Shown here piece by piece: positions 14,126-42,101 of a stretch of DNA of 64,000 nt. Positions within the stretch are counted from its first letter, which is position 1. The number at the start of each line of letters is the position of its first letter. The stretch spans positions 682,001-746,000 of the forward strand of contig NZ_FMZF01000002.1 in assembly GCF_900102745.1 (NCBI RefSeq). Reading direction: 5' to 3'. A program made the translations under genes and the position numbers. The DNA is from Geodermatophilus telluris. GTDB lineage: Bacteria > Actinomycetota > Actinomycetes > Mycobacteriales > Geodermatophilaceae. The notes beneath the pieces were generated by a model. It saw nothing but the letters and a program-made list of their open reading frames with translations. It ran no database searches and was not told the DNA's origin.

Positions 14126-14880
14126 GCTCCCTGCACCCCCGGTCCCGCGCCGGCCTGCTGCAGCGGCTGCGGCCCGGGCCGGTCGACGTCGACCTCCTCC
14201 GGGAGACCGCCACCGCCGTGCTCCCCGGCCTGGCCACCGGCGGCCTGCGCGCCGCCGTGTCGGCCGACCCCGTGCGCGGTCCCGTGCTGGTCCTCGCCGA
14301 GGACGAGCGCCGGGTGCGCACCCCGCTGCGCGACCTCGCCGAGGACATGACCGACGCCGGCGTGCCCCCGACCGCCGCCGCGGTCGCCGCCGCGCTCACC
14401 GACCTCGTCGCCGCCCGCCCGGTGACCGACGCCGCGGCCGCCGCGACCGGGGTGGCCGTCCTCGACTGGACCGACCGGGCCCGCGCCGCCGTCGGCTGGC
14501 GGGTCGTCGTCCGCCGCGGGGAGCGCACCGTCGGCTGGGCGCCGTCGGACCGCGCCGACGCCGCGGTCGTGGGCCGCACCCGGGCCGCCGCGCTCGGGCG
14601 CGCCGCCGACGCCGGGGGCGTGCTGCGCGTCGAGGGGCCGGTCGCGCTGTGGTCGCACCCCGGCGCGCCGATGCTCGCGTCCGCGGCCCTCGCCGACCCC
14701 GCCCGGCTGCTCGCCCGCATCGCCGACGCCGGGCTGCACCTGACCGAGCCGCACGTCGTCGTCACGCCGGTGCGTCCGGTGGCGTGCGCCTCGGCCGCCG
14801 TCGCCGCCCGGTTGGGCGAGACCGGCGAGGCCTGCGTCCGCCTGCCCTGGTCGCGCCTGCCCGACCTCCGCTGGCTCTAG
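14122..14880 (+). CDS. Hypothetical protein, second of a coupled pair
   Basis: 252 aa from GTG 14122, overlapping the preceding gene by 4 bases. Ala-rich and soluble, with a strand-rich middle (VAVLDWTDRARAAVGWRVVV, RRGERTVGWAPSDRADAAVV). I recognise no family. A hairpin repeat begins at its last stop base (14880), so the repeat may act as its terminator. Confidence 0.6.
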   Translation: MSSLHPRSRAGLLQRLRPGPVDVDLLRETATAVLPGLATGGLRAAVSADPVRGPVLVLAEDERRVRTPLRDLAEDMTDAGVPPTAAAVAAALTDLVAARPVTDAAAAATGVAVLDWTDRARAAVGWRVVVRRGERTVGWAPSDRADAAVVGRTRAAALGRAADAGGVLRVEGPVALWSHPGAPMLASAALADPARLLARIADAGLHLTEPHVVVTPVRPVACASAAVAARLGETGEACVRLPWSRLPDLRWL

Positions 14881-14943
14881 AAGGACCCCGTCGCCCCCCA
14901 CGCCTCGCGAGCTCGGCGCGGGCCCCTGCGACGGGGCCGTTCC
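14880..14943 (-). repeat. Dispersed hairpin repeat, copy 1
   Basis: Member of a dispersed structured repeat. In minus orientation: outer stem CCCCGTCGC/GCGACGGGG, conserved AGGGGCCCG joint, inner stem GCGCC/GGCGT, loop GAGCTCGCGA, tail GGGGTCCTTC. It lies between a plus gene end and a minus gene end, touching the stop codon of the former. Confidence 0.75.
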
Positions 14944-14958
14944 AGTACGTCACCGCGG

Positions 14959-16863
14959 CTACGCCAGGTCGCCGTACTCCCAGTGCCAGGGCTCGGGCTT
15001 CTCGCCGCCGGGCCGGGCCCAGTCGGGGTTGACGAAGCCGAACGCGCCGGCGTGCTGGGTCATCCAGGTCCACTGCGGGGTGCCGGCGACGTTGATCCCG
15101 CCGCAGAGGTCCACCGCCAGCGCCCAGCCGTGGTTCGACGTCCCCGGCACCGCGGCCAGCGCCGGCTTGCGGCGGAACGCGTCGACCTGCGCGCCCATCG
15201 ACCGGTAGGAGTCGGTGATGCACAGCGGGGTGCCGAAGGCCGCCTGGTAGGCCTGCGCCAGGGCCGCGTAGCCGGCCGCCGCGTCGCAGCGCAGCGCGTG
15301 GCCGCGGGCGACCGGGCACAGCGCCGCGGTCGGGATCCGGCCGTTGGACCAGCCACCCCACGCGGGGCTGACCGGACCGGCCGGCGCGGGGACGGCACCG
15401 CAGGCGCCCCGCCCCGACGTCGACACCGGCAGCGGCGCGTTGGGCTCGGCGGGCGCCGGCAGGGTCACCCGGACCGCGCGGGCGTCGGAAGGCACCGAGC
15501 GCACGCCCACCTGGTAGCTCGCCGCCGAGGCGCCGAGCACGTCGTCCCCGCCGAGGTAGATGCCGACGTCGAGGCCGCCGTCGGAGACCAGCAGGTCGCC
15601 GACCTGCAGCTGCGACGCGGGCACCACGGGCGCGGCGGCCCACTGTCCGGCCGCGGTGGTGGGCAGCGCGTACCCGCCGAGCAGGTAGGAGGCGGCCACC
15701 AGACCGCCGCAGTCGTAGGTGTCCGGCCCGGCGGCGCCGGCCACGTAGGGGCGGCCGGCCTGCGACAGCGCGCTGCTCACCGCGGCCACGGTCTCGGCGG
15801 GCAGCACGGTCACCGGCCGGTTGCCGGCCACCGCCCACGCCACGCCGGGCACGGCCTGCCCCGCGGCGTCGAGGGCGGGGGAGAAGCCCTCGGGCAGCGC
15901 GGCCGGGTCGGCCAGCTCGGCCGCCGACGGCGGCTCGACGCCGGCGGCGGCCAGCTCGGTGAGGTAGCCCTGCCAGCGCTGCAGGGCGGCGGCGTTGCGG
16001 GCCTGCTGCTCCCCGGCGGCGGGCACGGTGCCCAAGGCGGCCAGCTGCACCGAGACGTCGAGCCCCAGGTCGCCGGCGGTCTCCCGGATGCCGCCCAGCA
16101 GCGAGCGGGCCTGCGCGGTGGCCGCGTCGACGGCGGACTGCGCGGCGGCCACCCGGGCGGCGGCGGTCCGGACGGCGGCCTCGGCGCGCTCGGCGCGGGC
16201 GACGGCGGCCTCGCGGTCGCCGGCGGCGCGGTCGGCCAGCGCCTGCCGGTAGAGGACGTCGGGGGTGCCGGCCGGTGCGGTGGCGTCGAGGCCGAGCACC
16301 GGCATCCGGGTGAGGGCGGTGGCGCGGTAGAGGTCGGCCGCGGCGGCCCCCACGGTGGCCTGCTCGGCGGCGACGGCGGCGCGGGCGCCCTGCTCGGCGG
16401 CGACGGCCTGCTCCACCGCGGTCCGGCGGGCGGCGATCTCGGTCTGCAGCCGGCGGTAGGTGTCGGCGTCCTGCAGCAGGGTGCTGCGGGCGGCCAGCGC
16501 CAGGCCGGCCGGGTCGCCGGGCACGGTGGCCGCGCCGGGGGCGGACGTGGTCGGCGCGAGCAGCACGGTGAGCACGGGGACGAGCAGGGTGGCCAGGCCG
16601 ACGACGAGCAGCCGGGCCCGCCAGGGGCCGCGCGCGCGAGCGGTCCGGGGGGCGCGGCGGGCGGCCGGGCGGCGGCGGGTGGCCGAGCGCTGGCGGGCGG
16701 CGGCGGGCCGGGCAGGGCGCGGGCGGGCCCCGGCGGGGGCGCTGCCGGCGGTGCGGGCGGCGAGCAGGGCCTGCAGCGCCTGGGCCTCGCGGGCGGTCAG
16801 CGGGCGGCGGGGAGCGGGGACGCCGGCGGTCCGCGGGGAGGCGGTGGTGCGTGGTGCGGGCAC
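14959..16863 (-). CDS. Cell-wall hydrolase fusion: NlpC/P60-like plus VanY-type D-Ala-D-Ala carboxypeptidase
   Basis: 634 aa. The Arg-rich N-terminus is followed by a membrane anchor near 81-103 (LLVVGLATLLVPVLTVLL). A long Ala-rich coiled coil follows at about 125-250, then an NlpC/P60-like domain (DCGGLVAASYLLGG near 383, GDLLVSDG), then an M15 VanY domain with SYRSMGAQVDAF, SNHGWALAVDL near 577 and PEPWHWEY at the end. The VanY zinc/catalytic residues are intact. In the NlpC part the His normally preceding VGIYLG is replaced (LDVGIYLGG), so that domain may be inactive. Acts outside the membrane on peptidoglycan. Confidence 0.85.
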   Translation of the reverse strand: MPAPRTTASPRTAGVPAPRRPLTAREAQALQALLAARTAGSAPAGARPRPARPAAARQRSATRRRPAARRAPRTARARGPWRARLLVVGLATLLVPVLTVLLAPTTSAPGAATVPGDPAGLALAARSTLLQDADTYRRLQTEIAARRTAVEQAVAAEQGARAAVAAEQATVGAAAADLYRATALTRMPVLGLDATAPAGTPDVLYRQALADRAAGDREAAVARAERAEAAVRTAAARVAAAQSAVDAATAQARSLLGGIRETAGDLGLDVSVQLAALGTVPAAGEQQARNAAALQRWQGYLTELAAAGVEPPSAAELADPAALPEGFSPALDAAGQAVPGVAWAVAGNRPVTVLPAETVAAVSSALSQAGRPYVAGAAGPDTYDCGGLVAASYLLGGYALPTTAAGQWAAAPVVPASQLQVGDLLVSDGGLDVGIYLGGDDVLGASAASYQVGVRSVPSDARAVRVTLPAPAEPNAPLPVSTSGRGACGAVPAPAGPVSPAWGGWSNGRIPTAALCPVARGHALRCDAAAGYAALAQAYQAAFGTPLCITDSYRSMGAQVDAFRRKPALAAVPGTSNHGWALAVDLCGGINVAGTPQWTWMTQHAGAFGFVNPDWARPGGEKPEPWHWEYGDLA

Positions 16864-17093
16864 TGCGGGTCCCCCGGGCGTCTCGACGGGCGTGGCCGGC
16901 TCCGCGGCAGGGGTGCCGTGGAGCGCTCGCCGTCAGATCGACGCGGTGGGGGACCCGGAGGAGGGAGGGGGGAGTCGGTCTCACCCCAGGGGGTGAGGGA
17001 GGCCGCCCGGACGGGGGGGCCCGCGCGGAGGTCGGGTGTGCACCTCCCCCGGACGTGCGCGGGGCACGTCCGCGGGAGTGCGCGGGGGTGCGG

Positions 17094-17291
17094 TCAGCGG
17101 TCGGGCGGCCACCAGGCGCCGTGGCGGGGCACCAGCGCGATGCGGTGCTCCGCCCCGTCCTCGGTGGACACGACGAGCTCGACGGCGGTGACCGCCACCG
17201 AGTGCTCGTCGTCGAGGCGCAGCAGCCGCCCGGTCGCCAGCGGCACCGGTGGCAGGACGAGGGCGTCCTCGCCGGGCGGCTCGCTGCCCAT
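17094..17291 (-). CDS. Small hypothetical protein downstream of gltA
   Basis: 65 aa from ATG 17291, directly after the citrate synthase stop (11 bases). Predicted beta-rich, with RLLRLDDEHSVAVTAVELVV, EHRIALVPRHGAWWPP. No membrane segment or known domain. Probably co-transcribed with gltA. The 230 bases between it and the next gene upstream of 16863 show no other feature. Confidence 0.55.
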   Translation of the reverse strand: MGSEPPGEDALVLPPVPLATGRLLRLDDEHSVAVTAVELVVSTEDGAEHRIALVPRHGAWWPPDR

Positions 17292-17302
17292 GCCCGCCCG
17301 GG

Positions 17303-18619
<1,317 letters not shown>

Positions 18620-18673
18620 CGCACCGCGACGCTACTGGCGTCGGGCCCCGCCGACGACAGGTAGTCGTCCGCG

Positions 18674-18706
18674 GGGGTGGGCCCGGCACCCCGCCGGGCC
18701 CACCCC
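18674..18706 (-). terminator. Strong hairpin between fumC and gltA
   Basis: Perfect 14-base inverted repeat (GGGGTGGGCCCGGC and complement) with a 5-base loop, 7 bases after the fumC stop. It separates the fumC transcript from gltA. Confidence 0.7.
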
Positions 18707-18712
18707 GGGCCG

Positions 18713-20107
18713 TCAGGGGTGGGTCATGGACAGGACGTCGAGGGCCTCGTCGAGCTGCTGCTCGGTCAGCTTCCCCTGCTCCACGTAGCCGCGTTCCACG
18801 ACGACCTCGCGGATCGTCCTGCGCTCGGCCAGCGACTGCTTGGCGACCTTCGCCGCCTCCTCGTAGCCGATGTACTTGTTCAGCGGCGTGACGATCGACG
18901 GCGAGGACTCGGCGTAGGTGCGGCACTGCTCGACGTCGGCGACGATCCCGTCGACGCAGCGGTCGGCGAGCAGCCGGCTGACGTTGGCCAGCAGCCGGAT
19001 CGACTCCAGCACGTTGCGGGCCATCAGCGGCAGCGTCACGTTGAGCTCGAAGACGCCGGTGGTGCCGGCGTAGGTGACCGCCGCGTCGTTGCCGATCACC
19101 TGGGCGCCCACCTGGATGACCGCCTCGGGGATCACCGGGTTCACCTTGCCCGGCATGATCGAGCTGCCCGGCTGCAGGTCGGGCAGCTGGATCTCGCCGA
19201 GGCCGGTGCGCGGGCCCGAGCCCATCCACCGCAGGTCGTTGGCGATCTTCACCAGGCCCACGGCGATCGTCTTGAGCTGACCGCTGCCCTCGACCAGGGC
19301 GTCGCGGGAGCTCTGCGCCTCGAAGTGGTCGCGCGCCTCGGTGAGCGGGAGGTCGAGCTCGGCGGCGAGCTTCTCGATGATCGCGGCGGCGAACCCGGGC
19401 GGGGTGTTGATGCCGGTGCCGACGGCGGTGCCGCCCAGCGGCAGCTCGCCGATGCGCGGCAGCGAGGCGTGCAGCCGCTCCACGCCGTAGCGCACCGCTG
19501 CGGCGTAGCCGCCGAACTCCTGGCCGAGGGTGACCGGGGTGGCGTCCATCAGGTGGGTGCGGCCACTCTTGACGACCTCGCGGAACTCCTCGGCCTTGCG
19601 CGACAGCGCGGCCTCGAGGTGCTGCAGCGCCGGGACGAGGTCGCGCACGATCGCCCGGGTGGCGGCCACGTGGATGGCCGAGGGGAAGACGTCGTTGGAC
19701 GACTGCGAGGCGTTGACGTGGTCATTGGGGTGCACCGGCGTGCCCGTGGCCTCGGTGGCCAGGGTCGCGACGACCTCGTTGGTGTTCATGTTGCTCGACG
19801 TCCCCGAGCCGGTCTGGAAGACGTCGATGGGGAAGTGCTCGTCCCAGGTGCCGGAGGCGACGTCGGCGGCCGCGGCGGCGATCGCGTCGGCGACGCCGCG
19901 GTCGAGCACGCCGAGGTCGGCGTTGACCCGCGCGGCGGCGCCCTTGATGGCGGCCAGGGCGGCGATGAGCTCGCGCTCGATGGGCGTGCCGGAGATGGGG
20001 AAGTTCTCGACGGCGCGCTGGGTCTGCGCCCGCCACTTGGCCCAGGCGGGGACGCGGACCTCCCCCATGGAGTCGTGTTCGATGCGGTGGTCCTGCTCGG
20101 TGGCCAC
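18713..20107 (-). CDS. fumC: Fumarate hydratase class II
   Basis: Interconverts fumarate and malate. From GTG 20107 (GGGAG upstream) the protein is 464 aa, the standard class II length; the frame extends 19 residues further without similarity. The superfamily signature [11 protein letters not shown] is present, as are [25 protein letters not shown] and the substrate-site segment [20 protein letters not shown]. Acts in the cytosol in the TCA cycle, next to citrate synthase. Confidence 0.95.
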
Positions 20108-20154
20108 GCTGGCTCCCGTGTGGTGTCGGTGGGATCGCTGCTGCACGCGTGACC

Positions 20155-20213
20155 CTAGAAGCACCCCGTCGTCCCTCCTGCCCGCAGGCCCGGAGCGGGA
20201 CCCGGGAGGGGGC
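20155..20213 (-). repeat. Dispersed hairpin repeat, degenerate copy 2
   Basis: Weak member of the hairpin repeat family upstream of fumC. The minus-strand tail ACGGGGTGCTTC matches the family tail with one change, and CTCCCGGG/GGAGGG arms remain partly complementary. The stems are less perfect than in other copies. Confidence 0.4.
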
Positions 20214-20263
20214 CGATCGGGGACCTACGGTTCCCCGGACGTCCCCAGCCCCGAGGAGGGCCC

Positions 20264-20833
20264 GTGTCCCACCCGCCGTCCGTCGACCCGTCCTGGGAGC
20301 CGCCGGCCTGGACCCCGCCGCCGGCACCCACCCCCGCGGGCGCGTGGACGCCGTGGGGGACCTGGGACCCCGCCGCCGGCCGCCCCGTCCCGCCCCCGCC
20401 GCTGCCCGCGCCGCCGGCGTCCCCCGGCCGGCCGGGGCGCACCGTGCTCGCCGCGACCGCCCTGGGTGCCGCCGGCCTGGTCACCGCCACCGTCCTCGGC
20501 GCGCTGGTGCTGAGCTCGGCCGCCGACGAGCTCGGCCGCGGGATCGGTGCGGGCGTGGCCGAGGCCGTGGGCGCCGGTGGCGTCTACGCCGACCCGTCCT
20601 GGACCGGCGGGGCGCTCGGCCCGGTCGAGCAGTCCGACCCGGTGGAGCCCGACGAGCTCGGCCCCGACCCGGTGCTCGACGCCTACGCGCAGAGCTGCTT
20701 CGACGGCGACCTGCAGGCCTGCGACGACCTGTTCTACGAGTCGCCGCCGCTGTCGGGCTACGAGGAGTACGGCTCGACCTGCGGGGGCCGGGTGCGGCAG
20801 TACGAGGTCCCCGCCTGCACCGACCTGGACTGA
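20264..20833 (+). CDS. Membrane-anchored protein with one Cys-rich CDDLF domain
   Basis: 189 aa. Pro-rich cytosolic start (about 1-62), a membrane segment near 66-90 (VLAATALGAAGLVTATVLGA), and an exported C-terminus. The end carries the motif C-F-D-G-D-L-Q-A-C-D-D-L-F-x-x-S ... YEEYGSTCGGR, probably disulphide-bonded. The neighbouring gene at 21018 has two copies of the same motif, so these are paralogs. Function unknown; a surface or envelope protein is likely. Confidence 0.75.
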   Translation: MSHPPSVDPSWEPPAWTPPPAPTPAGAWTPWGTWDPAAGRPVPPPPLPAPPASPGRPGRTVLAATALGAAGLVTATVLGALVLSSAADELGRGIGAGVAEAVGAGGVYADPSWTGGALGPVEQSDPVEPDELGPDPVLDAYAQSCFDGDLQACDDLFYESPPLSGYEEYGSTCGGRVRQYEVPACTDLD

Positions 20834-21017
20834 GCGCCGCTGCCAGTCGTCCGCCAGCGACCCGCAAGCGCGTCCGGCCAGGCTGTCCGTGACCCCAGGT
20901 GCCGCCGGGGACCGTGGGACGGGGCGCCGCCGTCCCGTGACCGCGTTCCGCTCCCGGCCCACCCGGGGCCGACCGAGACTGTCGGGCGCACCCGACCCGA
21001 AGCGAGGAGTCCCCACC

Positions 21018-22148
21018 ATGTCCCAGCCTCCCCACCCTCCGCCGGGCGGCACCGACCCCGGGGCGCCGCAGCCGGGGCAGCAGGGCTGGGGCGCGTCCGA
21101 CGACCCGACCGCGCAGGCCGGTCACCCGGCGCCCCCCACGTCGCAGTTCCCGTCGGGGCAGTACGGCCAGCAGGGGCAGTACGGGCAGCCCGGCCAGTAC
21201 GGCGAGCGTGACCGGACCACCCCCCTCGGCCCGCCGGGCCAGGACCCGCACCAGGCCCCGTACGGCCAGCAGTACGGCGAGCAGTACGGCCAGCAGCCCC
21301 CCGGCGGGTACGACCCGAACCAGGCGCAGTACGGCCAGCAGTACGGGCAGCAGCCCTACGGCCAGCAGCCCTACGGCGCGTACGACCCGAACCAGGCCCA
21401 GTACGGCCAGCAGTACGGGCAGCAGTACGGGCAGCAGTACGGCCAGCAGCCCTACGGCCAGCCGCAGCGGCCGGCGAGCAGGCGGAACCTGGTCGTCGCG
21501 CTGACCGTCGGTGGGGTGCTGCTGCTCGCGGGGCTCGCCGTCGGGCTGTTCTTCCTGCTCCGCGGGGACGACGGCGGCACCACGGTCGCCGACCCGACCG
21601 GCACGAGCACGAGCACGAGCTCGTCGTCCGCGGGCTCGTCGTCCCCGAGCTCCTCCGTGGGCTCGTCGTCGCCCGCGGGCGCGTGCGAGGAGCCGTCGGG
21701 GAGCGGAACGGCGGGCGTGCCCGACCCGGCGTCGCCCTGCTCGATCACCGAGCCCGACCCCGACGGGGAGTTCCTCCCGCTGGCCGAGCAGTGCGCGGCC
21801 GAGGACTGGACGGCGTGCGACGACCTCTTCTTCGCCACCTCGATCGGGTCGGACTGGGAGGAGTACGGCTCCACCTGCGGCGGTCGCAACGACCCGCAGG
21901 GCGGCGGCTGCGAGGAGCTCTACGCCGGTGGCGGCGTCCCGCCGGCCACGATCCCGCCCACCGGGCTCGGCTCGGACCCTGCGCTGAACGCCCAGGCGCA
22001 GAGCTGCTACGACGGCGACATGGCCGCGTGCGACGACCTGTTCTTCGCCTCCGACGCCGACTCGGCCTACGAGCGCTACGCCGACACCTGCGCCGGCCGG
22101 CAGCCGGAGGGCACCGGCGAGCTGTGCACGGTCAGCTTCCCGGAGTGA
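21018..22148 (+). CDS. Membrane protein with QYGQ repeats and two CDDLF Cys domains
   Basis: 376 aa from ATG 21018. Residues about 45-150 are low-complexity repeats of QYGQQ, QPYG and YDPNQA (the DNA at 21160-21460 is correspondingly repetitive). A membrane segment follows near 158-180 (LVVALTVGGVLLLAGLAVGL, FFLL), then a Ser/Thr linker. Two extracellular modules come last (C-x-x-x-D-W-T-A-C-D-D-L-F-F ... YGSTCGGR, and C-Y-D-G-D-M-A-A-C-D-D-L-F-F ... YADTCAGR). It is a paralog of the upstream gene, from which 184 bases separate it. Confidence 0.8.
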   Translation: MSQPPHPPPGGTDPGAPQPGQQGWGASDDPTAQAGHPAPPTSQFPSGQYGQQGQYGQPGQYGERDRTTPLGPPGQDPHQAPYGQQYGEQYGQQPPGGYDPNQAQYGQQYGQQPYGQQPYGAYDPNQAQYGQQYGQQYGQQYGQQPYGQPQRPASRRNLVVALTVGGVLLLAGLAVGLFFLLRGDDGGTTVADPTGTSTSTSSSSAGSSSPSSSVGSSSPAGACEEPSGSGTAGVPDPASPCSITEPDPDGEFLPLAEQCAAEDWTACDDLFFATSIGSDWEEYGSTCGGRNDPQGGGCEELYAGGGVPPATIPPTGLGSDPALNAQAQSCYDGDMAACDDLFFASDADSAYERYADTCAGRQPEGTGELCTVSFPE

Positions 22149-23289: not shown

Positions 23290-23302
23290 GGGGACCTCCA
23301 GA

Positions 23303-23358
23303 GGAAGGACCCCGTCCTCCCCACCCTCGCCTGCTCGGAGGGTGCGCTGGACGGGGCC
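23303..23358 (-). repeat. Dispersed hairpin repeat, copy 3
   Basis: Minus orientation: GGCCCCGTCC / GGACGGGGTCC outer stem, CACCCTC/GAGGGTG inner stem, loop CGAGCAGGC, tail GGTCCTTCC. It sits in the short divergent gap between glpX and the DUF4245 gene, 14 bases upstream of glpX. Confidence 0.7.
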
Positions 23359-23407
23359 GCGGTCGTGGGGCGGCGGGGTGGGTCGGCGGTGCTGCGATCC
23401 TAGGGGA

Positions 23408-25483: not shown

Positions 25484-25488
25484 GCACC

Positions 25489-27176: not shown

Positions 27177-27243
27177 GGGACGGCCTCCCTGCAGGGGCCC
27201 GCCGCGAGCCGGCGAGTGGCGGGGAGCAGGGAGGTCCTTTCTC
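27177..27243 (+). repeat. Dispersed hairpin repeat, copy 4, directly upstream of ispH
   Basis: ACGGCCTCCCTGC ... GCAGGGAGGTCC outer stem, CCCGCC/GGCGGG inner stem, loop GCGAGCCGGCGAGT, tail GGTCCTTTCTCT. It ends 5 bases before the first possible ispH start, and its GGGAGG is the nearest ribosome-site-like motif. Confidence 0.8.
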
Positions 27244-27256
27244 TACCATGGGGGCC

Positions 27257-28265: not shown

Positions 28266-28357
28266 GTGGAACGGCCTCCCTGCAGGGGCCCGCCGCAGGC
28301 CCCGTCCAGAGGCTCGTCCCGAGCTCGCGAGGGATGAGGAGGACGGGGTCCTTCCAC
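28266..28357 (+). repeat. Composite hairpin repeat, copies 5a and 5b
   Basis: A truncated left half (GGAACGGCCTCCCTGCAGGG, then GCCCGCCGC, to 28296) is followed without gap by a complete copy (28297-28357) with stems GCCCCGTCC/GGACGGGGT and CTCGTCCC/GGGATGAG, loop GAGCTCGCGA and tail GGTCCTTCC. The ends form GTGGAA/TTCCAC. Located between the ispH terminator and the end of the DUF6542 gene. Confidence 0.75.
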
Positions 28358-28374
28358 GGTGGGAGGTCCTCCCG

Positions 28375-30504: not shown

Positions 30505-30588
30505 GGAGGCGGCCCCGTCCCACTGCCGTGGCCCCCCTGCCGGGTCCCGCCGCGAGCGGAGGGAGTGGCGGGGGCAGGGGGGTCCTCC
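30505..30588 (+). repeat. Composite hairpin repeat, copies 6a and 6b
   Basis: A truncated left end (GGCCCCGTCCCACTGCC to 30527) is followed by a complete copy (30528-30588): outer stem CCCCCCTGCC/GGCAGGGGGG, inner CCGCC/GGCGG with loop GCGAGCGGAGGGAGT, tail GGTCCTCC. It fills the gap between rmuC and ogt, starting 7 bases upstream of the TTG drawn as the rmuC start and ending 2 bases before the ogt stop codon. Confidence 0.7.
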
Positions 30589-30589
30589 G

Positions 30590-31126
30590 TCAGGCGTCGA
30601 CGGGGACGGGGGCGTGCTCCGCCTCGTGGTCGAGCAGCCAGCGCTTGACCGGCGTGCCCCACCGGAAGCCGCCGAGGCCGCCGTCGGAGCCGAGCACGCG
30701 GTGGCAGGGCACGAACAGCGCCGCGGCGTTGCGGGCGCAGGCGTTGGCCGCGGCCCGCACCGCCGACGGCCGGCCGCAGCGCGCGGCGAAGGCGGCGTAG
30801 GTGTCGGGCTGCCCGGCGGGCACCGTGCGCAGCACCTCCCACGCGTCCTCGAGGAAGGGGCCGGAGCGCTGCCGCACCGGGACGGCGTCGATCGCGGTGA
30901 CGTCGCCGTCGACGAAGGCCGCCACGGTGTCGAGCACCGGCAGGGTGTCGGCGCGCTCGACCCAGGTGGGCCGCAGCGCGCGGTGGACGACCGGCAGCAG
31001 CTCGGCGACGTCGGCGGTCCAGCCGGCGGCCAGGACGACGTCCTCCCCGTCGACCCCGGTGGTGACGACGACGGTGAACGGTCCGGGCGGGGTGGCCACG
31101 GTGGCGTGGCGCGCGGGCGGGGTCAT
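30590..31126 (-). CDS. ogt: Methylated-DNA--protein-cysteine methyltransferase
   Basis: Suicide repair enzyme that removes alkyl groups from O6-guanine. 178 aa from ATG 31126, which overlaps the stop of the ada-alkA gene by 4 bases. The active site is PCHRVLGSDGGLGGFRWGTP with the acceptor Cys; the Arg-finger region is RAAANACARNAAALFV. The N-terminal part is the usual poorly conserved domain. Co-translated with the Ada/AlkA fusion, so it forms an alkylation-repair operon. Confidence 0.94.
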   Translation of the reverse strand: MTPPARHATVATPPGPFTVVVTTGVDGEDVVLAAGWTADVAELLPVVHRALRPTWVERADTLPVLDTVAAFVDGDVTAIDAVPVRQRSGPFLEDAWEVLRTVPAGQPDTYAAFAARCGRPSAVRAAANACARNAAALFVPCHRVLGSDGGLGGFRWGTPVKRWLLDHEAEHAPVPVDA

Positions 31127-34967: not shown

Positions 34968-34974
34968 CCGGCAG

Positions 34975-34994
34975 CGTCCACCGACCGGTGGACG
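34975..34994 (+). terminator. Hairpin after the lysozyme-like gene
   Basis: Perfect 8-base stem CGTCCACC/GGTGGACG with loop GACC, 8 bases after the stop. Confidence 0.55.
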
Positions 34995-35049
34995 GCGGAC
35001 CCACGGAACGGGCGTCCCGGTGGACGCCGCGACCGGCCAGGCTGGGGCC

Positions 35050-35952
35050 ATGACAGCGATCCAGGTGGCGCCGGTCCCGGTGCCGGTCGGGCAGGACCCG
35101 GCGGTCCGCGTGCGCGGGCTGGTCAAGCGGTACGGCGGCCGCGCCGTGGTCGACGGCGTGGACCTCGACGTCCGCCGCGGCGAGGTCTTCGCCCTGCTCG
35201 GGCCCAACGGGGCGGGCAAGACGACCACCGTCGAGGTGCTCGAGGGCGTGCGCCGGCGCGACGGCGGCGAGGTCACCGTCCTCGGCGAGGACCCGGCGAC
35301 GGCGGGGCGGGGCTGGCGCGACCGGATCGGCGTGGTCGCGCAGAGCACCGGCGTCGGCGACGCGCTCACCGTGCGCGAGACGCTCGACCACTTCGCCCGC
35401 TACCACGGCACCGCCCGGCCCACCGCCGAGCTGCTCGCCGCGGTGGGCCTTCCCGAGGCCGCGGGCACCCGGGTGGCGCGGCTCTCCGGCGGCCAGCGGC
35501 GCCGGCTGGAGGTGGCGCTCGGCGTGCAGGGCCGCCCGGAGCTGCTGTTCCTCGACGAGCCCACCACCGGCATGGACCCGGTGGCCCGCCGGCGGTTCTG
35601 GGACCTCGTCCGCGGCCTGCGGGCCGGCGGGACGACCGTGGTGCTCACCACGCACTACCTCGACGAGGCCGCCGAGCTCGCCGACCGGGTCGGCGTCCTG
35701 GCCGACGGGCGGCTGGTCGACGTCGCTCCGCCCGGCGAGCTCGGTGCGCAGCTGCGGCGGGTGGCCACCGTGCGCTGGACCGAGGACGGCGCGACCCGCG
35801 AGGTGCGCACCCCCGAGCCGGCCGCCGTGCTCCGCGACCTGCTCGCCGCGCACCCGGCCGGCGAGGTGCCCGGCCTGACCGTCACCCGCCCCGGCCTGGA
35901 GGACGTGTACCTGTCCCTGGTCGGCGCCACCCCCGAGGGAGAGACCCGATGA
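35050..35952 (+). CDS. ABC exporter ATP-binding protein
   Basis: 300 aa from ATG 35050. Walker A LLGPNGAGKTTTVEVLEG, signature LSGGQRRRLEVALG, Walker B LLFLDEPTTGMDP, H-loop LTTHYLDEAAEL. The fold and C-terminal extension fit the drug/antibiotic exporter (DrrA/YadG-like) class. The stop overlaps the permease ATG by 4 bases. A histidine kinase and response regulator follow, so the transporter may be controlled by that pair. Confidence 0.93.
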   Translation: MTAIQVAPVPVPVGQDPAVRVRGLVKRYGGRAVVDGVDLDVRRGEVFALLGPNGAGKTTTVEVLEGVRRRDGGEVTVLGEDPATAGRGWRDRIGVVAQSTGVGDALTVRETLDHFARYHGTARPTAELLAAVGLPEAAGTRVARLSGGQRRRLEVALGVQGRPELLFLDEPTTGMDPVARRRFWDLVRGLRAGGTTVVLTTHYLDEAAELADRVGVLADGRLVDVAPPGELGAQLRRVATVRWTEDGATREVRTPEPAAVLRDLLAAHPAGEVPGLTVTRPGLEDVYLSLVGATPEGETR

Positions 35953-36776
35953 CCGCCGTCCTGACCCCCGCGACGACCCGCCCGGCGCCGCCGTCGGCAC
36001 TGGCCATCGGCCTGGCCCGCACCGGCCTGGAGCTGCGGTTGTTCGTCCGCGACCCGGCGCAGGTGGTGTTCTCCTTCGCCTACCCGATCGTGATGCTGGT
36101 GATCTTCGCGTCGGTGTTCGCCGGCGAGGACCGGCCCGGCGGCGTGCCGTTCGCGCAGTACTTCCTCGCCGGGATCGCCGCCACCGGGATCATGCTGACC
36201 AGCTTCCAGGCGGTGGGCACGGCGCTGGCCGAGGAGCGCGAGCGCGGCGACCTGGCCCGCCTGCAGGTCATCGGCACCCCGCCGCTGGGCTACTTCCTCG
36301 GCAAGGCCGGCCAGGTGCTGGTGACGACGGTGCTGCAGCTGGCGGTGCTGCTCACCGTGGCCGCCACCGTCTACGACGTGTCGCTGCCCACCGGCGTCGG
36401 CCGCTGGCTGACCTTCGCCTGGGTGGTGCTGCTCGGGGCGGTGGCCGGCACGGTGCTCGGCACCGCGGTGGCGTCGGCGGGCAGCAGCCGCGCGGTGGGC
36501 AACGGGATCAGCGCGTTCGCCGTCGTCCTGCAGTTCTTCTCCGGGGTGTTCTTCGTCTTCTCCGAGCTGCCCTCGTGGATGCAGGAGGTGGCCGCGGTCT
36601 TCCCGCTGAAGTGGCTGGTGCAGGGCATGCGGTCGGTGTTCCTGCCCGACGCCGCGGCCGCGGCCGAGCCCGCGGGCAGCTGGGAGCACGGGACCACCGC
36701 CCTCGTGCTGGCCGCGTGGGTGGTCGTCGGTCTCGTGGTCTGCGCCCGCACGTTCCGCTGGCGCCGGACGGCGTGA
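35949..36776 (+). CDS. ABC exporter permease (ABC-2 type)
   Basis: 275 aa with six predicted membrane segments (VVFSFAYPIVMLVIFASVFA, GIAATGIMLTSFQAVGTALA, VLVTTVLQLAVLLTVAATVY, WVVLLGAVAGTVLGTAVASA, GISAFAVVLQFFSGVFFVFS, LVLAAWVVVGLVVCARTFRW). EERERGDLARLQVIGTPPLG is the conserved cytosolic coupling region. Forms the exporter with the upstream ATPase; overlaps the kinase gene. Confidence 0.9.
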   Translation: MTAVLTPATTRPAPPSALAIGLARTGLELRLFVRDPAQVVFSFAYPIVMLVIFASVFAGEDRPGGVPFAQYFLAGIAATGIMLTSFQAVGTALAEERERGDLARLQVIGTPPLGYFLGKAGQVLVTTVLQLAVLLTVAATVYDVSLPTGVGRWLTFAWVVLLGAVAGTVLGTAVASAGSSRAVGNGISAFAVVLQFFSGVFFVFSELPSWMQEVAAVFPLKWLVQGMRSVFLPDAAAAAEPAGSWEHGTTALVLAAWVVVGLVVCARTFRWRRTA

Positions 36777-38014
36777 GCACCGCCCGCCGCCGGCTGGCCG
36801 CCGTCCTCGTCCCCGCCGCCGGGGACGAGGGCGGCGAGCCGCTGTCCGCCCGAGGGTGGCGCGCCACCGTCGTCGGGATGCACGTCATCTCGGCGGCGGT
36901 CTGGACGCTGGCGGTGGCCAGCGTGCTCTCCGGCGAGGTGACCGCGCCCGTGGAGCAGGGGCCGGTGCTCGCCGTCCTGGCGGTGCTGGCGCTGTCCTAC
37001 GTCCTCGCCGGCGGGCCGGCGGTGGCGGGCGGGCACCCGCGGCGGGCGCTGGTCCACCTCGTCGTCGTGGTGGTCGCCTTCGGGCTGCTGGGCCGGCTGG
37101 CGCCGGGGCTGCTGTTCCTGCTCTTCCTGGCCTACCCGCAGGTCTGGTTCGTGGTGCAGGGCCGGCTGACCGGAGTGGCCTGGACGGTGCTGCTGGCCGT
37201 GGCCAGCGCGGTCGGCCCGGTCTCCGGGGCGGTGGCCGGCGGTACCACGCTGGAGGTCCTGCGCGAGTCGGTGGTCAGCCTGGCGTTCAGCCTGGCGCTC
37301 GGGCTGTGGATCAGCCACGTGCTGCGGCAGAGCGCGGAGCGGGCCGACCTCATCGAGCAGCTCCGGCGCACCCGCTCGGAGCTGGCCACCGCCGAGCGCG
37401 AGCGCGGGGTGCTCGCCGAGCGGGAGCGGCTGGCGGGGGAGGTGCACGACACGCTGGCGCAGGGCTACACCTCGATCGTGGTGCAGGCGCAGACCGCCGC
37501 CGCGCTGCTCGCCGCCGACCCCGACGCCGCCCGCGAGCGGCTGTCGGTGATCGAGGAGGTCGCGCGCGACAACCTGGCGGAGGCCCGGGCGGTGGTGGCG
37601 GCGTTCCGGCCGGTGGCCCTCGACGGGTCGACGCTGGTCGAGGCGCTGCAGCGGCTGGCGTCCCGCTTCGCGCGGGAGACGGGGCTGGCGGTGCGGGTGG
37701 ACACCGGCGCGCTCGACGGCGTGCCGGCGCTGCGCACCGACGAGGAGGTGGTCCTGCTGCGCGGGGCGCAGGAGGCGCTGACCAACGTCCGCCGGCACGC
37801 GGGGGCCACGGCCGTGGTGCTGCGGCTGGCGCGGGTGGGCCCGCAGGTGTCGGTGCACGTGGAGGACGACGGCGTGGGCTTCGACCCGTCGGCGGTGGCC
37901 GCGTCGGGTCTGGAGGGGCTGCGCGGTCGGGTGGCGCAGGTGGGTGGCGAGGTCGACGTCGCCTCGGCGCCGGGCGCGGGCACCCGGGTGACCGTGCGGG
38001 TGCCGGGGTCGTGA
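36773..38014 (+). CDS. Sensor histidine kinase, NarL/DesK-type
   Basis: 413 aa from GTG 36773, overlapping the permease by 4 bases. Five to six membrane segments in the first 190 residues, then the HisKA_3 dimerisation box (ERERLAGEVHDTLAQGYTSI with the phospho-His near 222) and an HATPase_c domain (AQEALTNVRRHAGATAVVLR, VEDDGVGFDPSAVAASGLEG). No large outer sensor domain, so the signal is probably sensed in the membrane. Partner is the next gene. Confidence 0.92.
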   Translation: MSTARRRLAAVLVPAAGDEGGEPLSARGWRATVVGMHVISAAVWTLAVASVLSGEVTAPVEQGPVLAVLAVLALSYVLAGGPAVAGGHPRRALVHLVVVVVAFGLLGRLAPGLLFLLFLAYPQVWFVVQGRLTGVAWTVLLAVASAVGPVSGAVAGGTTLEVLRESVVSLAFSLALGLWISHVLRQSAERADLIEQLRRTRSELATAERERGVLAERERLAGEVHDTLAQGYTSIVVQAQTAAALLAADPDAARERLSVIEEVARDNLAEARAVVAAFRPVALDGSTLVEALQRLASRFARETGLAVRVDTGALDGVPALRTDEEVVLLRGAQEALTNVRRHAGATAVVLRLARVGPQVSVHVEDDGVGFDPSAVAASGLEGLRGRVAQVGGEVDVASAPGAGTRVTVRVPGS

Positions 38015-38649
38015 GCATCCGGGTGCTGGTGGTCGACGACCACCCGGTGGTGCGCGGCGGGCTGGTCGGCTGGCTGGCGGCGCAGCCCGACCTCGACGTC
38101 GTCGGGGAGGCCGGCGACGGGCAGGAGGCGCTGGCGCTGGTGGCGTCCACCGCGCCGGACGTCGTCCTCATGGACCTGCGGATGCCGCGGGTGGACGGCG
38201 TCACCGCGACCGAGCGGCTCGCCGCCACGCACCCCGACGTGCGGGTGCTGGTGCTCACCACCTACGACACCGACGCCGACATCCTGCGCGCCGTCGCGGC
38301 GGGGGCCACCGGCTACCTGCTCAAGGACGCGCCGCTGCCGCAGCTGGCCGACGCCGTCCGTGCCGCCGCCCGGGGGGAGACCGTGCTCGCGCCCCCGGTG
38401 GCCGCCCGGCTGGTGTCCCGCATGCGCGCACCGGCCCCCGAGGAGCCCACCCCGCGGGAGCTGGAGGTGCTGGCCGGGGTGGCGCGCGGGCTGACCAACG
38501 CCGAGATCGGCCGGGAGCTGTTCATCGGCGAGGCCACGGTGAAGACCCACCTGCTGCGGGTGTTCGCCAAGCTCGGCGTGGACGACCGCACCCGGGCGGT
38601 GATGGTCGCGGTCGAGCGCGGCCTGCTGCCCGGCCCCGGCTCGCGCTAG
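38011..38649 (+). CDS. Response regulator, NarL/LuxR-type
   Basis: 212 aa from GTG 38011 (GTGA overlap with the kinase). Receiver domain with VLVVDDHPVVRGGLVGWLAA, phospho-Asp in PDVVLMDLRMPRVDG near 53 and LLKDAPL. LuxR-type helix-turn-helix at the end (TPRELEVLAGVARGLTNAEI, GRELFIGEATVKTHLLRVFA, KLGVDDRTRAVMVAVERGLL). Likely regulates the linked ABC exporter. Confidence 0.94.
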   Translation: MSIRVLVVDDHPVVRGGLVGWLAAQPDLDVVGEAGDGQEALALVASTAPDVVLMDLRMPRVDGVTATERLAATHPDVRVLVLTTYDTDADILRAVAAGATGYLLKDAPLPQLADAVRAAARGETVLAPPVAARLVSRMRAPAPEEPTPRELEVLAGVARGLTNAEIGRELFIGEATVKTHLLRVFAKLGVDDRTRAVMVAVERGLLPGPGSR

Positions 38650-38690
38650 GAACCCTGGTCGCCCGCCCCGGCGGCCGACAGGGTGACCGC

Positions 38691-39725
38691 ATGGCCCGGC
38701 TGATCAGCCCCCGCGCGCTGCTCGAGCTGCTGCGGACCGGCGACGCCCGTGCGCGGTGGCGTGCCGCGCAGGACGGGCAGGCCGCCCTGCGCCTGCAGGT
38801 CGTCAGCGCCGCGCTCGACACCGGGGTGCTCGACGAGCTGGCCCGGGCGCCCGCGGGCACCGCCGAGCTCGCCCGTCGCACCGGTGTCACCGAGCCCGCG
38901 CTGCTGGAGGCCTTCCTGCGCGTGGCGGCCGTGGTCCGGCTCGTCGACGGGGACGGCGCCGGGTGGCGGCTGGGCCGGGCCGGGCGCGCCGTCGTCGGGG
39001 ACGACCTCGTCCGGGCCTCCTACCAGGGCTTCGGCGGCTTCCACACCGACCTCTACCGCGGGCTGCGCGCGGTGCTCGCCGGCGGGACGCGGCGGCGGGA
39101 CGTCGCCGAGCGGGGCGAGGTCATCGCCCGGATGAGCGCCGGCTTCGACGTGTTCGTGCACGACCTGCTCGTGCGGACCGTCGCCGAGCGGCGCCCGCGC
39201 CGGGTGCTCGACGTCGGCTGCGGTGCCGGGCTGCAGCTCGCCGGCATGCTGGAGGCGGCGCCCGCGGCCTCGGGGGTCGGGGTGGACGTCGACGCCGAGG
39301 CCGCCGCCCTGGCCGCCCGGACCCTGCGGGAGCGCGGGCTCGCCGACCGGGCGACCGTCGAGGCGGTCGACGTCCGGACCGCGCTCGCGACGGGACCGGC
39401 CGGCGCGCTCGCCGAGCCCTTCGACCTCGCCCTGCTGGCCAACGTCGTCTACTACCTGCCTCCGGCCGAGCGGGTGCCGCTGCTGCGGGCGGTCGCCGGC
39501 CTCCTGGCCCCCGGCGGCACGCTGCTCGTGGTCACCACCGCCGCCGCCCCGCAGCTGTTCAGCCGGCACATGGACCTGCTGCTCCGCGCCCAGGACGGCG
39601 ACATGCAGCTGCCCGACGCCGACTCCCTGGTCCGGCAGCTGGCCGAGGCCGGCCTCGACCCGCAGCCGCCGCGCAGCCTCGTGCCGGGGACGCCGCTGAT
39701 CGCGGTGTCGGCCACCCGCGGGTGA
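38691..39725 (+). CDS. SAM-dependent methyltransferase
   Basis: 344 aa. N-terminal winged-helix/dimerisation part (LQVVSAALDTGVLDELARAP, GTAELARRTGVTEPALLEAF) and a Rossmann methyltransferase domain with RVLDVGCGAGLQLAGMLEAA (SAM site), VGVDVDAEAAALAARTL and LALLANVVYYLP. The layout resembles O-methyltransferases of secondary metabolism. Substrate unknown. The upstream 40 bases show no strong promoter motif. Confidence 0.82.
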   Translation: MARLISPRALLELLRTGDARARWRAAQDGQAALRLQVVSAALDTGVLDELARAPAGTAELARRTGVTEPALLEAFLRVAAVVRLVDGDGAGWRLGRAGRAVVGDDLVRASYQGFGGFHTDLYRGLRAVLAGGTRRRDVAERGEVIARMSAGFDVFVHDLLVRTVAERRPRRVLDVGCGAGLQLAGMLEAAPAASGVGVDVDAEAAALAARTLRERGLADRATVEAVDVRTALATGPAGALAEPFDLALLANVVYYLPPAERVPLLRAVAGLLAPGGTLLVVTTAAAPQLFSRHMDLLLRAQDGDMQLPDADSLVRQLAEAGLDPQPPRSLVPGTPLIAVSATRG

Positions 39726-39782
39726 CCCGGGTCACCCGCCGCTACGCTCGCGCAGCACCCGGACCGCACCCGGAGGTGCTCC

Positions 39783-41180
39783 ATGGACGCTGGTGTCGAC
39801 ACCCTGCAGAAGGCCCTGCAGGTCAACCTGGACCTGCGCTGGTACGGCACCATCGCCGAGATCGGGGCCGGCCAGGAGGTGGCCCGCTGGTTCTTCCGGG
39901 CCGGGGGCGCGGCGGGCACGGTGGCCAAGTCGATGTCGGCCTACGACATGGCGGTGAGCGACGCCGTCTACGGCAAGGCCGACCGCTACGTCTCCCAGGG
40001 CCGGCTGCAGGCGATGCTCGACCGCGAGCTGCAGCTCAACATCGACCGGCTCGGCGACCAGCGCGGCGACGACACCTCCTTCTTCGCCTTCGCCGACACC
40101 GTCGTGGCCCGCAGCTACCGCGGGGGCAACGAGTGCCACGGCTGGATGGGCGTGAAGTTCCAGGCGCACCCGCGCGACGAACCCAGCCAGGTCGTCATCC
40201 ACGTGCGGATGCTCGACGACGAGGCGCCGCAGCAGCAGGAGGCACTCGGCATCGTCGGCGTGAACCTCCTGCACGCCGCCTTCTTCCAGCACCACGAACC
40301 CGACCGGCTCGTGGAGAGCCTGCTCGACCGGCTGACCCCCGGCCGCATCGAGATCGACCTGCTGGAGATGAGCGGCATCGAGTTCCGGATGGTCGACAAC
40401 CGGCTGATGGCGCTCAAGCTCGTGCAGGTCGGGCTCTCCGGTGCGGCGATGTTCGGTCCCGACCGGCGGGTGCTGCAGCCCAGCGAGGCGCTGCGGAAGA
40501 AGGCGATCCTGGTCGAGCGCGGCAGCTTCCGCCCGCCGACCGTGGTCAACATCGACATGCTCGAGGCGGCCCGGACGGCGTTCGAGCAGGACCCGGCGGT
40601 CGCCGAGCGCGAGGTGCTCGTGCTCACCGAGCTCACCATGGCCAACCTCCGCGCCGGCGGGGACGTCGTCGACCGGCGGGACTTCCTCGCCCGCGCCGAC
40701 CTGCTGGCCGCCTGTGGCCTGCCGGTGCTGATCTCGGACTACCTGGCCTACCACCGGCTGGCCGCCTACCTCGCCTGGCGCACCGACGGCCGGCTGGGGA
40801 TGGTCATGGGGGTGCCCAGCCTGCTCGAGCTGTTCGACGAGGCCGCGCACGCCGACCTGCCCGGCGGGATCCTGGAGAGCTTCGGGCGCCTGTTCAAGAA
40901 CGACCTGCGGCTGTTCGTCTACCCGATGCTGCGCGACAGCCGGGTGGTCACGGTCGAGACGGCCGAGGTGGCCGAGCAGCTGCGGCCGCTGTTCGACTAC
41001 CTCCACCGGCGCGGCAGCTTCGTCGGCCTCGACCACCAGGCGGACTACCTGCCGATCCTCAGCCGGGACGTGCTCCGGCGGATCCCCACCGACGACACCG
41101 GCTGGGAGGCGATGGTGCCGGCGCAGGTGGCGACACTGATCAAGAAGCGCGGCTTCTTCGGCTACGACCGGTCGCGCTGA
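39783..41180 (+). CDS. Conserved protein of unknown function (family often mislabelled)
   Basis: 465 aa, soluble, no signal peptide. Distinctive blocks are LDLRWYGTIAEIGAGQEVAR, AYDMAVSDAVYG, RSYRGGNECHGWMGVKFQAH, PSQVVIHVRMLDDEAPQQQE, LGIVGVNLL and AILVERGSFRPPTVVNIDML. I recall homologs across bacteria with annotations such as TonB-dependent receptor or nicotinate-nucleotide adenylyltransferase; neither fits, since there is no signal, barrel or nucleotide motif. Function is unknown. It stands alone. Confidence 0.7.
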   Translation: MDAGVDTLQKALQVNLDLRWYGTIAEIGAGQEVARWFFRAGGAAGTVAKSMSAYDMAVSDAVYGKADRYVSQGRLQAMLDRELQLNIDRLGDQRGDDTSFFAFADTVVARSYRGGNECHGWMGVKFQAHPRDEPSQVVIHVRMLDDEAPQQQEALGIVGVNLLHAAFFQHHEPDRLVESLLDRLTPGRIEIDLLEMSGIEFRMVDNRLMALKLVQVGLSGAAMFGPDRRVLQPSEALRKKAILVERGSFRPPTVVNIDMLEAARTAFEQDPAVAEREVLVLTELTMANLRAGGDVVDRRDFLARADLLAACGLPVLISDYLAYHRLAAYLAWRTDGRLGMVMGVPSLLELFDEAAHADLPGGILESFGRLFKNDLRLFVYPMLRDSRVVTVETAEVAEQLRPLFDYLHRRGSFVGLDHQADYLPILSRDVLRRIPTDDTGWEAMVPAQVATLIKKRGFFGYDRSR

Positions 41181-41281
41181 CCCCTGGTCGCGGCTGGCGC
41201 ACGGTGGCGCGGATCTGTGGACGAGCCGCTGACCTGCGGATTCGTCCTGCAGCCGCCCGTCGGATCGGCTGGACTTCGTAC

Positions 41282-42101
41282 GTGTGTTCGGGTGACGGGT
41301 CGACCGGTGACGTGCTGGACGACGTCGCCGCGCTGGTCGCCGAGCGCAACCGGATCGACGCGTTGTTGGCCCGCCGGGTGCGGGCCGCCGAGCTGTCCCA
41401 GGCGGCCGAGCGCGACGGACTGAGGTCGATGCGGTCGTGGCTGGCCGGGCACTGCCGGCTCTCGCCTGCCGCGGCCGCCCGCATCGTGGGCAACGGGCGG
41501 GTGCTGGCGCACTTGCCGGCGCTGGCCGAGGCCCACGAGGCCGGCCTGGTCACCGCCGAGCAGGTCGCCGTGGCGGCCACCGCGCTGACACCCGGCTGTG
41601 CGACACCACGCTGGCCGCCGGCGGTCTGCCGGTGCTGCGCACGGTCAAGCCGCACATCGCCGCGGTGATCGACCTCGACGACCTCGCCGGCACCGCCACC
41701 GGCCCGGAGGCCGCCCGGATGGGGTTCGGCGCGGTCGTCTCCGCCGCGAGAGCCCGCTGGCTGGCCTGCGACAGCACCGTCTCCCGCGTGGTCTTCGGCC
41801 CCGACGGCGCACCGCTCGACCTCGGCCGCGAACACCGCCTGGCCAACCGGTGTGGCCCCTCCGCAGGGGCCCACCGCGAGCTTGCGAGCGGTGAGGGGGC
41901 GGAGGGGTCCTTTCTCTGGTGCACTGGCTCGACGGCGGCGAGACCAACCTGCAGAACTCGGCGCTGCTGTGCGAGCGGCACCACACCAAGGTCCACCACG
42001 GCTTCCGCGTCGAGCGACAACCGGACGGGCGGTGGCGGACCTGGCGACCCGACGGCACCGAGATCGGCGTGCCGCCACCGCTGCTGCAACCCGCCGCCTG
42101 A
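41282..42101 (+). pseudogene. Broken DUF222/HNH endonuclease gene (13E12-type), interrupted by a hairpin repeat
   Basis: Remnant of a DUF222-HNH gene of a kind repeated in actinobacteria. The N-terminal part is readable (VAERNRIDALLARRVRAAEL ... EQVAVAATALTP). The frame then shifts near 41590 and much of the middle is missing. A second piece (TVKPHIAAVIDLDDLAGTAT ... VFGPDGAPLDLGREHRLA) follows, then hairpin repeat copy 7. The last piece (HWLDGGETNLQNSALLCERH, HTKVHHGFRV) is at 41921-42101. The HNH segment with C-x-x-C/H-H ligands that normally joins the last two pieces is absent. Confidence 0.85.
41850..41920 (+). repeat. Dispersed hairpin repeat, copy 7, inside a coding sequence
   Basis: Outer stem GGCCCCTCCGC/GCGGAGGGGTCC, joint AGGGGCCC, inner stem CACCGC/GCGGTG with loop GAGCTTGCGA, tail GGTCCTTTCTCT. 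It lies between two fragments of a former HNH endonuclease gene. Its flanks are coding remnants, so it arrived or expanded here by replacing coding DNA. Confidence 0.8.

What the first reader, a model, noticed from the sequence alone, without database searches (positions are those of the whole stretch)
14880..41920. Dispersed hairpin repeat with compensatory stem changes at seven loci
Seen directly: repeats at 14880-14943, 20155-20213 (weak), 23303-23358, 27177-27243, 28266-28357, 30505-30588 and 41850-41920. Each has an outer stem that differs in sequence but stays complementary (CCCCGTCGC/GCGACGGGG, CCTCCCTGC/GCAGGGAGG, CCCCTCCGC/GCGGAGGGG, CCCCCCTGCC/GGCAGGGGGG, CCCCGTCC/GGACGGGG). Each also has a variable inner stem, a loop close to GAGCTCGCGA, and a tail GGTCCTTTC or GGTCCTTCC. 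Covariation suggests selection on folded RNA or single-stranded DNA, as in REP/MITE elements or a terminator-like element. I know of no named family that matches.
Basis: partly seen in the sequence, partly recalled or inferred. Interest (0 to 1): 0.74.

Follow-up and report, generated by a model that had tools for sequence, protein, structure and literature searches.

The report
Stop-codon-hugging mobile DNA hairpins
The window holds seven copies of a hairpin repeat for which I found no name, scattered over well over a hundred places in this soil actinobacterium and common in its relatives, usually sitting just behind a gene's stop codon, with no transposase yet found that explains how it moves.

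Summary
A covariance model recovers all seven loci (worst E 5e-5), at least 147 matches in the 4.8-Mb genome, and matches in 48 of 57 family genomes (Geodermatophilaceae); outside the family it is nearly absent. Covariation survives a tree-based null (3 of 19 pairs significant, none outside the structure).

New facts: (1) It is an insertion: orthologous rpoC and groES 3' ends are empty in some genomes and filled in others, with the native downstream hairpin kept. (2) Its AAGGACC end abuts stop codons: 36 of 59 own-genome copies lie 0-5 nt behind one, 2% expected. (3) The folding strand is antisense to the abutted gene: inner stem G.T 236 versus A.C 9. (4) Copies also nest in each other's loops.

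Y1 (IS200/RAYT) transposases occur in 0 of 57 family genomes; Y2, reverse-transcriptase and IS110 genes do not match its distribution. It lacks the GTAG and CGTC tags of known REPs; Rfam has no match.

Best reading: a REP/MITE-like mobile hairpin family, recognised as a folded single strand, mobiliser unknown. Main functional rival: a terminator facing antisense transcripts.

The parts
14881..14954 (+). Full-length copy in gene-sense orientation: AAGGACC - hairpin - GGCCGTTCCAGTACGTCACC, directly behind the TAG (14878-14880) of the called + gene 14122-14880; the convergent gene ends at 14959. R1 hit on the model strand: 14873-14942 -
20151..20218 (-). Weak, decayed copy (model strand), between divergently called genes
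   Evidence: 30.9 bits, E 4.7e-5
23297..23362 (-). 8-bp outer-stem (CCCCGTCC) copy, not next to a called stop codon; divergent intergenic region
27178..27247 (+). 9-bp outer-stem (CCTCCCTGC) copy; sense 5' flank GGTAGAGAAAGGACC; 132 nt from the nearest called gene on that side
28268..28373 (+). Nested pair: an outer copy (ends at 28268 and 28373) whose loop holds a second, complete copy at 28293-28355
   Evidence: same kind of nesting in other genomes
30526..30595 (+). Copy directly behind the TGA of the called - strand gene 30590-31126 (4 nt)
41850..41920 (+). Copy inside the HNH-coding part of a DUF222/HNH gene remnant; the same arrangement is present in three other repeats of that gene in the genome
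   Evidence: the gene was named by reading its translation, not by a family search of this copy

Best explanation
The repeats are copies of a non-autonomous mobile hairpin, REP/MITE-like in kind, that has expanded in Geodermatophilaceae. Each is about 60-75 nt: a variable 8-9 bp outer stem, an internal loop, an inner stem of about 8 bp, and a loop of the form GA-G(CYNG)C-GA. An unidentified enzyme is inferred to recognise the element as a folded single strand, the one antisense to the gene that the element ends up behind, and to insert it at stop-codon junctions or in the loop of an existing copy; the A/G-rich end of the element can itself complete the stop codon. Shown: sites filled in some genomes and empty in others; stop-codon adjacency on one fixed side; strand-specific pairing; covariation; nesting; family restriction. 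Inferred: that the folded strand is single-stranded DNA during transposition, that most copies are tolerated rather than needed, and that the enzyme is none of those tested.
For: Filled and empty orthologous sites: rpoC 3' end 8 of 30 filled, rpoB-rpoC 4 of 30, groES 14 of 30 plus one reversed and not at the stop; polymorphic sites among four Geodermatophilus genomes. Stop adjacency: 36 of 59 own-genome copies 0-5 nt behind a called stop on the AAGG side, none at 6-20 nt; 2 of 59 at 0-5 nt on the other side; chance 2.0%, p 7e-46. Family-wide 202 of 243 copies have a stop triplet at 0-5 nt, against 6% for random host sequence and 21% for random host sequence joined to the element's real last three bases. 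At groES 13 of 13 printed filled sites have TAG or TAA and 11 of 12 printed empty ones TGA. At one convergent site the copy in G000 abuts one gene's stop and those in G037 and G004 the other gene's, in opposite orientation (by eye). Strand: inner stem G.T 236 against A.C 9 in 234 cores; the model strand folds better in 93 of 94 (RNA) and 91 of 94 (DNA parameters). Copies in the loop of other copies. Closest own copies at separate sites are 90-96% identical, so copying is not ancient for all. Family: 48 of 57. Copy number differs within genera, e.g. g11 from 1 to the cap.
Against: No mobiliser was found: Y1 0 of 57, Y2 1 of 57 and in a genome without the element, reverse transcriptase and IS110 absent from many element-rich genomes. 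No target-site duplication was seen; filled sites often lack host sequence that empty ones have (by eye). Some 'empty' sites look like collapsed elements, so losses explain part of the patchiness, and similar inner sequences at groES in three genera suggest old retention there. Part of the stop adjacency could arise because the element's A/G-rich end turns a preceding T into a stop.
Confidence: 0.58

Rival explanations
1. A terminator or roadblock against antisense transcription: RNA made opposite to the gene folds and is released at the T-rich tail just before the coding sequence, shielding the gene's 3' end. Position and strand are then selected, and mobility only supplies the copies.
For: The better-folding strand is the antisense one. 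The tail on that strand holds 3.26 T per 8 nt, against 1.26 on the sense side and 0.98 background (243 copies). The orientation leaves operons such as rpoB-rpoC and groES-groEL without a sense terminator.
Against: The tail is on average poorer than the 5 T of 8 that the terminator scan asks for, and none of six copies was flagged; but that scan allows loops of 3-8 only, so it could not have found this 10-nt loop and counts for little. Stop-adjacent copies show no clear excess at convergent gene pairs (my count: 13 of 36, about 31% expected from the gene pairs). At the three orthologous sites half or more of the genomes lack any copy. Part of the T content is the complement of the stop codon. 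My comparison hairpins (59 found behind other genes, 1.24 T on either strand) show no strand difference, so they may not be terminators and are a poor yardstick.
Confidence: 0.25
2. A conventional 3'-UTR hairpin of the sense mRNA (terminator or 3'-end stabiliser) selected in place and spread by gene conversion.
For: Position behind genes, between stop codon and native hairpin; similar copies at groES in three genera.
Against: The sense strand pairs worse and has no T-rich tail; most empty sites show no hairpin at that place, the rpoB-rpoC gap being an exception. Native hairpins remain at rpoC and groES.
Confidence: 0.09
3. Pairing is kept up mainly by a mutational process: template switching within the hairpin copies one arm from the other, so covariation needs little selection.
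For: Two copies are perfect 21-bp palindromes; on the tree 32 outer-stem changes go from one Watson-Crick pair to another on a single branch, against 15 single steps to G.T.
Against: It does not explain the G.T over A.C strand bias, nor why the loop and the AAGGACC end are conserved.
Confidence: 0.08

Closest known systems
GTAG REPs / REPINs mobilised by RAYT (TnpA-REP, IS200/IS605-like)
   Same: Palindromic repeats in high copy, mostly 3' of genes; termini of GTAG REPs often supply a stop codon; a RAYT recognises single-stranded REP DNA (Di Nocera 2013, PMC3733652: abstract, sections 6 and 15, and passages read).
   Different: No GTAG tag, two-tier 60-75 nt hairpin against 20-40 bp, no Y1 transposase in 57 genomes.
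CGTC REPs, including Rickettsia palindromic elements RPE-4 and RPE-6
   Same: Dispersed palindromes apparently without a dedicated transposase, some inside genes (PMC3733652).
   Different: No CGTC tag; single 8-9 bp stems with 4-5 nt loops there, two stems and a 10-nt loop here.
MITEs
   Same: Non-autonomous, polymorphic between genomes, hairpin-forming.
   Different: No target duplication seen and no parent insertion sequence found (no systematic search for one).
TRIT terminators of Mycobacterium (recalled, not tested)
   Same: Sequence-conserved hairpins in high copy in an actinobacterium (recalled).
   Different: Here the element lies upstream of the native hairpin and folds better on the antisense strand.

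Membership tests
RAYT-mobilised GTAG REP | GTAG at one end of the hairpin | tested here: not met
   Consensus ends CTGARGAAGGACC and GGCCGTTCCAGCACGTCACC from 243 copies
RAYT-mobilised GTAG REP | Y1 transposase in the genome | tested here: not met
   PF01797 in 0 of 57 family genomes; 5 of 14 control genomes ring
RAYT-mobilised GTAG REP | High copy, predominantly 3' of genes | tested here: met
CGTC REP | CGTC tag, 8-9 bp stem, 4-5 nt loop | tested here: not met
Intrinsic terminator | GC-rich hairpin followed by a U tract | tested here: inconclusive
   Hairpin yes; T-enriched tail on the antisense strand only; the scan cannot see a 10-nt loop
Intrinsic terminator | Takes the place of the gene's own 3' hairpin | tested here: not met
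   Native hairpin still downstream at rpoC and, in 11 of 13 printed filled sites, at groES; only at rpoB-rpoC does the native hairpin seem lost
MITE | Filled and empty orthologous sites | tested here: met
MITE | Terminal inverted repeats shared with a full insertion sequence, and target duplication | tested here: inconclusive
   No duplication seen by eye; no systematic search for a parent element
Rfam families | Match to a curated RNA family | tested here: not met
   cmscan of the window at E up to 5: two weak hits elsewhere in the window
Element driven by IS91-type (Y2), reverse transcriptase or IS110 enzymes | Enzyme present wherever the element is abundant | tested here: not met
   for Y2 no control genome rang, but one family genome did

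The most novel reading that the evidence does not exclude
A mobile hairpin whose folded antisense strand both directs its insertion at stop codons and hairpin loops, through an enzyme class not yet linked to palindromic repeats, and ends antisense transcripts at the gene's last codon, so that a selfish element became a genome-wide strand insulator.
Probability: 0.15. Interest if true: 0.8.

Novelty: new variant of a known kind. Interest (0 to 1): 0.52.

Why it matters
How palindromic repeats without a RAYT spread is open: Di Nocera et al. (PMC3733652) leave it so for CGTC REPs. This family offers a clean test bed: hundreds of copies, sharp ends, filled and empty orthologous sites in cultured soil and desert bacteria, a stop-codon rule and a named folding strand, with the usual enzymes tested and not fitting. 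It also warns that 3'-end hairpins in GC-rich actinobacteria are not all terminators.

Tried and rejected
Rfam: nothing at the elements. Y1, Y2, reverse-transcriptase and IS110 families: absent or not matching the element's distribution. DUF222: in 57 of 57 genomes, also those without the element, so not explanatory. Viral contigs by one exact pattern, which covers one outer-stem type only, and plasmids and phages by blastn with one 77-nt copy: no match. Integron attC sites: considered for their place behind genes; the recalled GTTRRRY box is not in the consensus. Shared flanks as a sign of a parent transposon: the long repeat found was the DUF222/HNH gene; the filter dropped pairs of 100% identity to skip duplicate loci, so identical pairs were looked for afresh (best 96%).

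Biases and drops. The first covariation run and the 243 copies, which feed, were chosen by demanding paired outer arms; the outer-stem pair counts are therefore inflated, the inner-stem counts are not chosen that way. One search chose copies by sequence anchors alone (147 distinct, 94 after a 95% filter). The 243 copies include orthologous ones and are not independent. Counts are capped near 88 per genome, so copy number could not be correlated finely with enzymes. Searches used stricter filters that lose weak matches. Gene calls come from my own script. In one search four of 30 groES loci were not printed because my text pattern missed them; stop-codon counts use the 26 printed. In one search, 10 of 106 copies without a recognisable loop were dropped. 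The terminator scan cannot detect loops above 8 nt; after noticing this I moved the antisense-terminator odds from 0.22 to 0.25 and the main reading from 0.60 to 0.58.
Full report
Observation. The seven loci are copies of one family. From 19 own-genome copies, five of them from the window, I built model R1. With filters off it finds all seven in the window, E 4.6e-18 to 4.7e-5; the next hit is at 0.049. A strict sequence pattern gave 20 matches in the genome and none for the pattern read backwards. The whole genome holds at least 147 matches at E up to 0.1; only 150 candidates were scored, so this is a lower bound. An unselected 400-kb stretch (C2:1-400000) has 17 at E up to 0.01, three of them one tandem array, which extrapolates to about 200.

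Anatomy. The loop resembles a CUUG tetraloop closed by G-C with tandem G.A pairs (that likeness is recalled). Read in the sense of the neighbouring gene, 243 copies from own and related genomes give CTGARGAAGGACC - hairpin - GGCCGTTCCAGCACGTCACC with a sharp 3' end; the 3' tail is kept within four changes in 56 of 243. Outer-stem types recur (CCTCCCTGC 8, CCCTCCTGC 7, CCCCCTCGC 5 of 59), so subfamilies have been copied. The closest own copies at separate sites are 90-96% identical.

Covariation. On A3, 11 of 20 pairs change on both sides; 0 of 500 shuffles reach that. On the 59-copy alignment, which was fitted to the model and leans towards it, 12 of 20 pairs (1 of 500 shuffles as high) and 145 cells (0 of 500) do. 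The cleanest test used copies chosen by sequence anchors alone, without any demand for pairing (147 distinct; 94 after a 95% filter), and a null that moves substitutions between columns along a tree: 3 of 19 pairs reach E below 0.05, no pair outside the structure does, and the reversed pattern gave 0 hits against 185. It is my own script, not R-scape; a tree built from the same columns makes it conservative. Sixteen of the 19 pairs are not significant, many because they hardly vary.

Which strand folds. In 234 distinct cores the inner stem has 1129 Watson-Crick pairs, 236 G.T and 9 A.C on the model strand; without the one position that is mostly G.T the ratio is still 81 to 9. The outer stem has 2005, 23 and 3, but these copies were picked for paired outer arms. 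In the sequence-anchored set the model strand folds more stably than its complement in 93 of 94 with RNA and 91 of 94 with DNA parameters. The model strand is antisense to the gene that the element abuts.

Stop-codon rule. In 864 kb of the genome with home-made gene calls, 36 of 59 copies have their AAGG side 0-5 nt behind a stop codon and none at 6-20 nt; the other side is at 0-5 nt in 2 of 59 and at 6-20 nt in 7. Random intergenic placement gives 2.0%, p 7e-46. The remaining 23 copies are 21 nt or more from such a stop. In the wider set 202 of 243 copies have a stop triplet within 0-5 nt, with TGA at exactly 4 nt in 108; random host sequence has one in 6%, and in 21% when joined to the element's real last three bases. 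The copies without one often show CAG where the others have CTG(A) (14 of 41), and C at -8 in 35 of 41, which hints at a target preference or a longer element end.

It is an insertion. At the rpoC 3' end in 30 family genomes, 8 carry the element between TGA and the native hairpin; the other 22 have a short spacer there. At groES 14 of 30 carry it behind the stop and one carries it reversed, away from the stop; 13 of 13 printed filled sites have TAG or TAA, 11 of 12 printed empty ones TGA, and the native hairpin before groEL is still visible in 11 of the 13. Between rpoB and rpoC it is present in 4 of 30, and there the native hairpin seems lost. Comparing 320 kb of the own genome with 240-260 kb of three relatives shows many polymorphic sites, one site (groES) occupied in all four with differing stems, and one where genomes carry copies in opposite orientation, each abutting its own stop. 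Some empty sites look like collapsed copies, so losses occur too. One copy lies in frame inside a protein gene, in place of a stretch of nearly equal length in the relatives.

Nesting. A complete copy sits in the loop of another copy in the window (28268-28373) and in L131, L184 and L274; in L188 it sits in an arm instead (judged by eye).

Distribution. Family: 48 of 57 genomes; the nine without are small, fragmented genomes of three genera. Order: of 101 genomes 14 match, 12 of the family and 2 of others (three copies in all); 67 non-matching genomes were not listed, so I cannot say whether family members are among them. Class: besides the own genome one weak hit (E 5.5e-5) among 296. One same-genus contig (G046:C1, 613,265 bp) has the length of a Geodermatophilus tzadiensis record, so the window is most likely from Geodermatophilus.

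Mobiliser. Y1 transposase 0 of 57, Y2 1 of 57, reverse transcriptase 29 of 57 and IS110 36 of 57; the last two are missing from many element-rich genomes. DUF222 is in all 57. So the element is not a RAYT-driven REP, and its enzyme is unknown; other transposase families were not tested.

Function. The antisense-strand tail is T-rich (3.26 of 8 against 1.26 on the sense side), which with the strand bias allows a terminator that faces antisense transcription. Against it, weakly: fewer T than a standard scan asks for (which cannot see this loop size), and no clear excess of stop-adjacent copies at convergent pairs (13 of 36 against about 31%). I place the mobile-element reading first and the antisense terminator second; both can hold.

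Literature. I searched the held library and saw no description of this family in the listings; most subscription papers are not in it. Of Di Nocera 2013 (PMC3733652) I read the abstract, sections 6 and 15 and passages. Other papers were seen only in search listings.

Noticed in passing
L106, L103 and the rpoC flanks in L125, L127 and others: A second hairpin repeat family (GCGTCC..GGACGC with arms such as CTGGCTCAC/GTGAGCCAG or CTCCCTCAC/GTGAGGGAG), often beside GATCAGGTCACCTGATC, also with matching arm changes; it begins with CGTC and may be CGTC-REP-like.
   Followed up: no
window about 41214-42137; L014, L017, L019: Four related DUF222/HNH genes carry the element inside the HNH-coding part, so the insertion was apparently duplicated with the gene; the window copy has a further deletion of about 340 bp.
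   Followed up: partly
L101:5563-5814; L206 near 2916-3045; L218: Tandem amplification of element parts (units of about 63 bp or 37-48 bp), as slippage at hairpins would give.
   Followed up: no
L132 (rpoC of G015), L170 (G004): Two copies that are perfect 21-bp palindromes, as if one arm had been copied from the other.
   Followed up: partly
L081 (G118:C6:461-529): One strong copy, in the usual place behind a TGA, in a genome of another family and near a contig start: transfer or contamination.
   Followed up: no
L123-L152, rpoB-rpoC gap: A native hairpin (often of GCCGGCCGGCC type) between rpoB and rpoC in most of the 30 family genomes, seemingly gone where the element is present.
   Followed up: no
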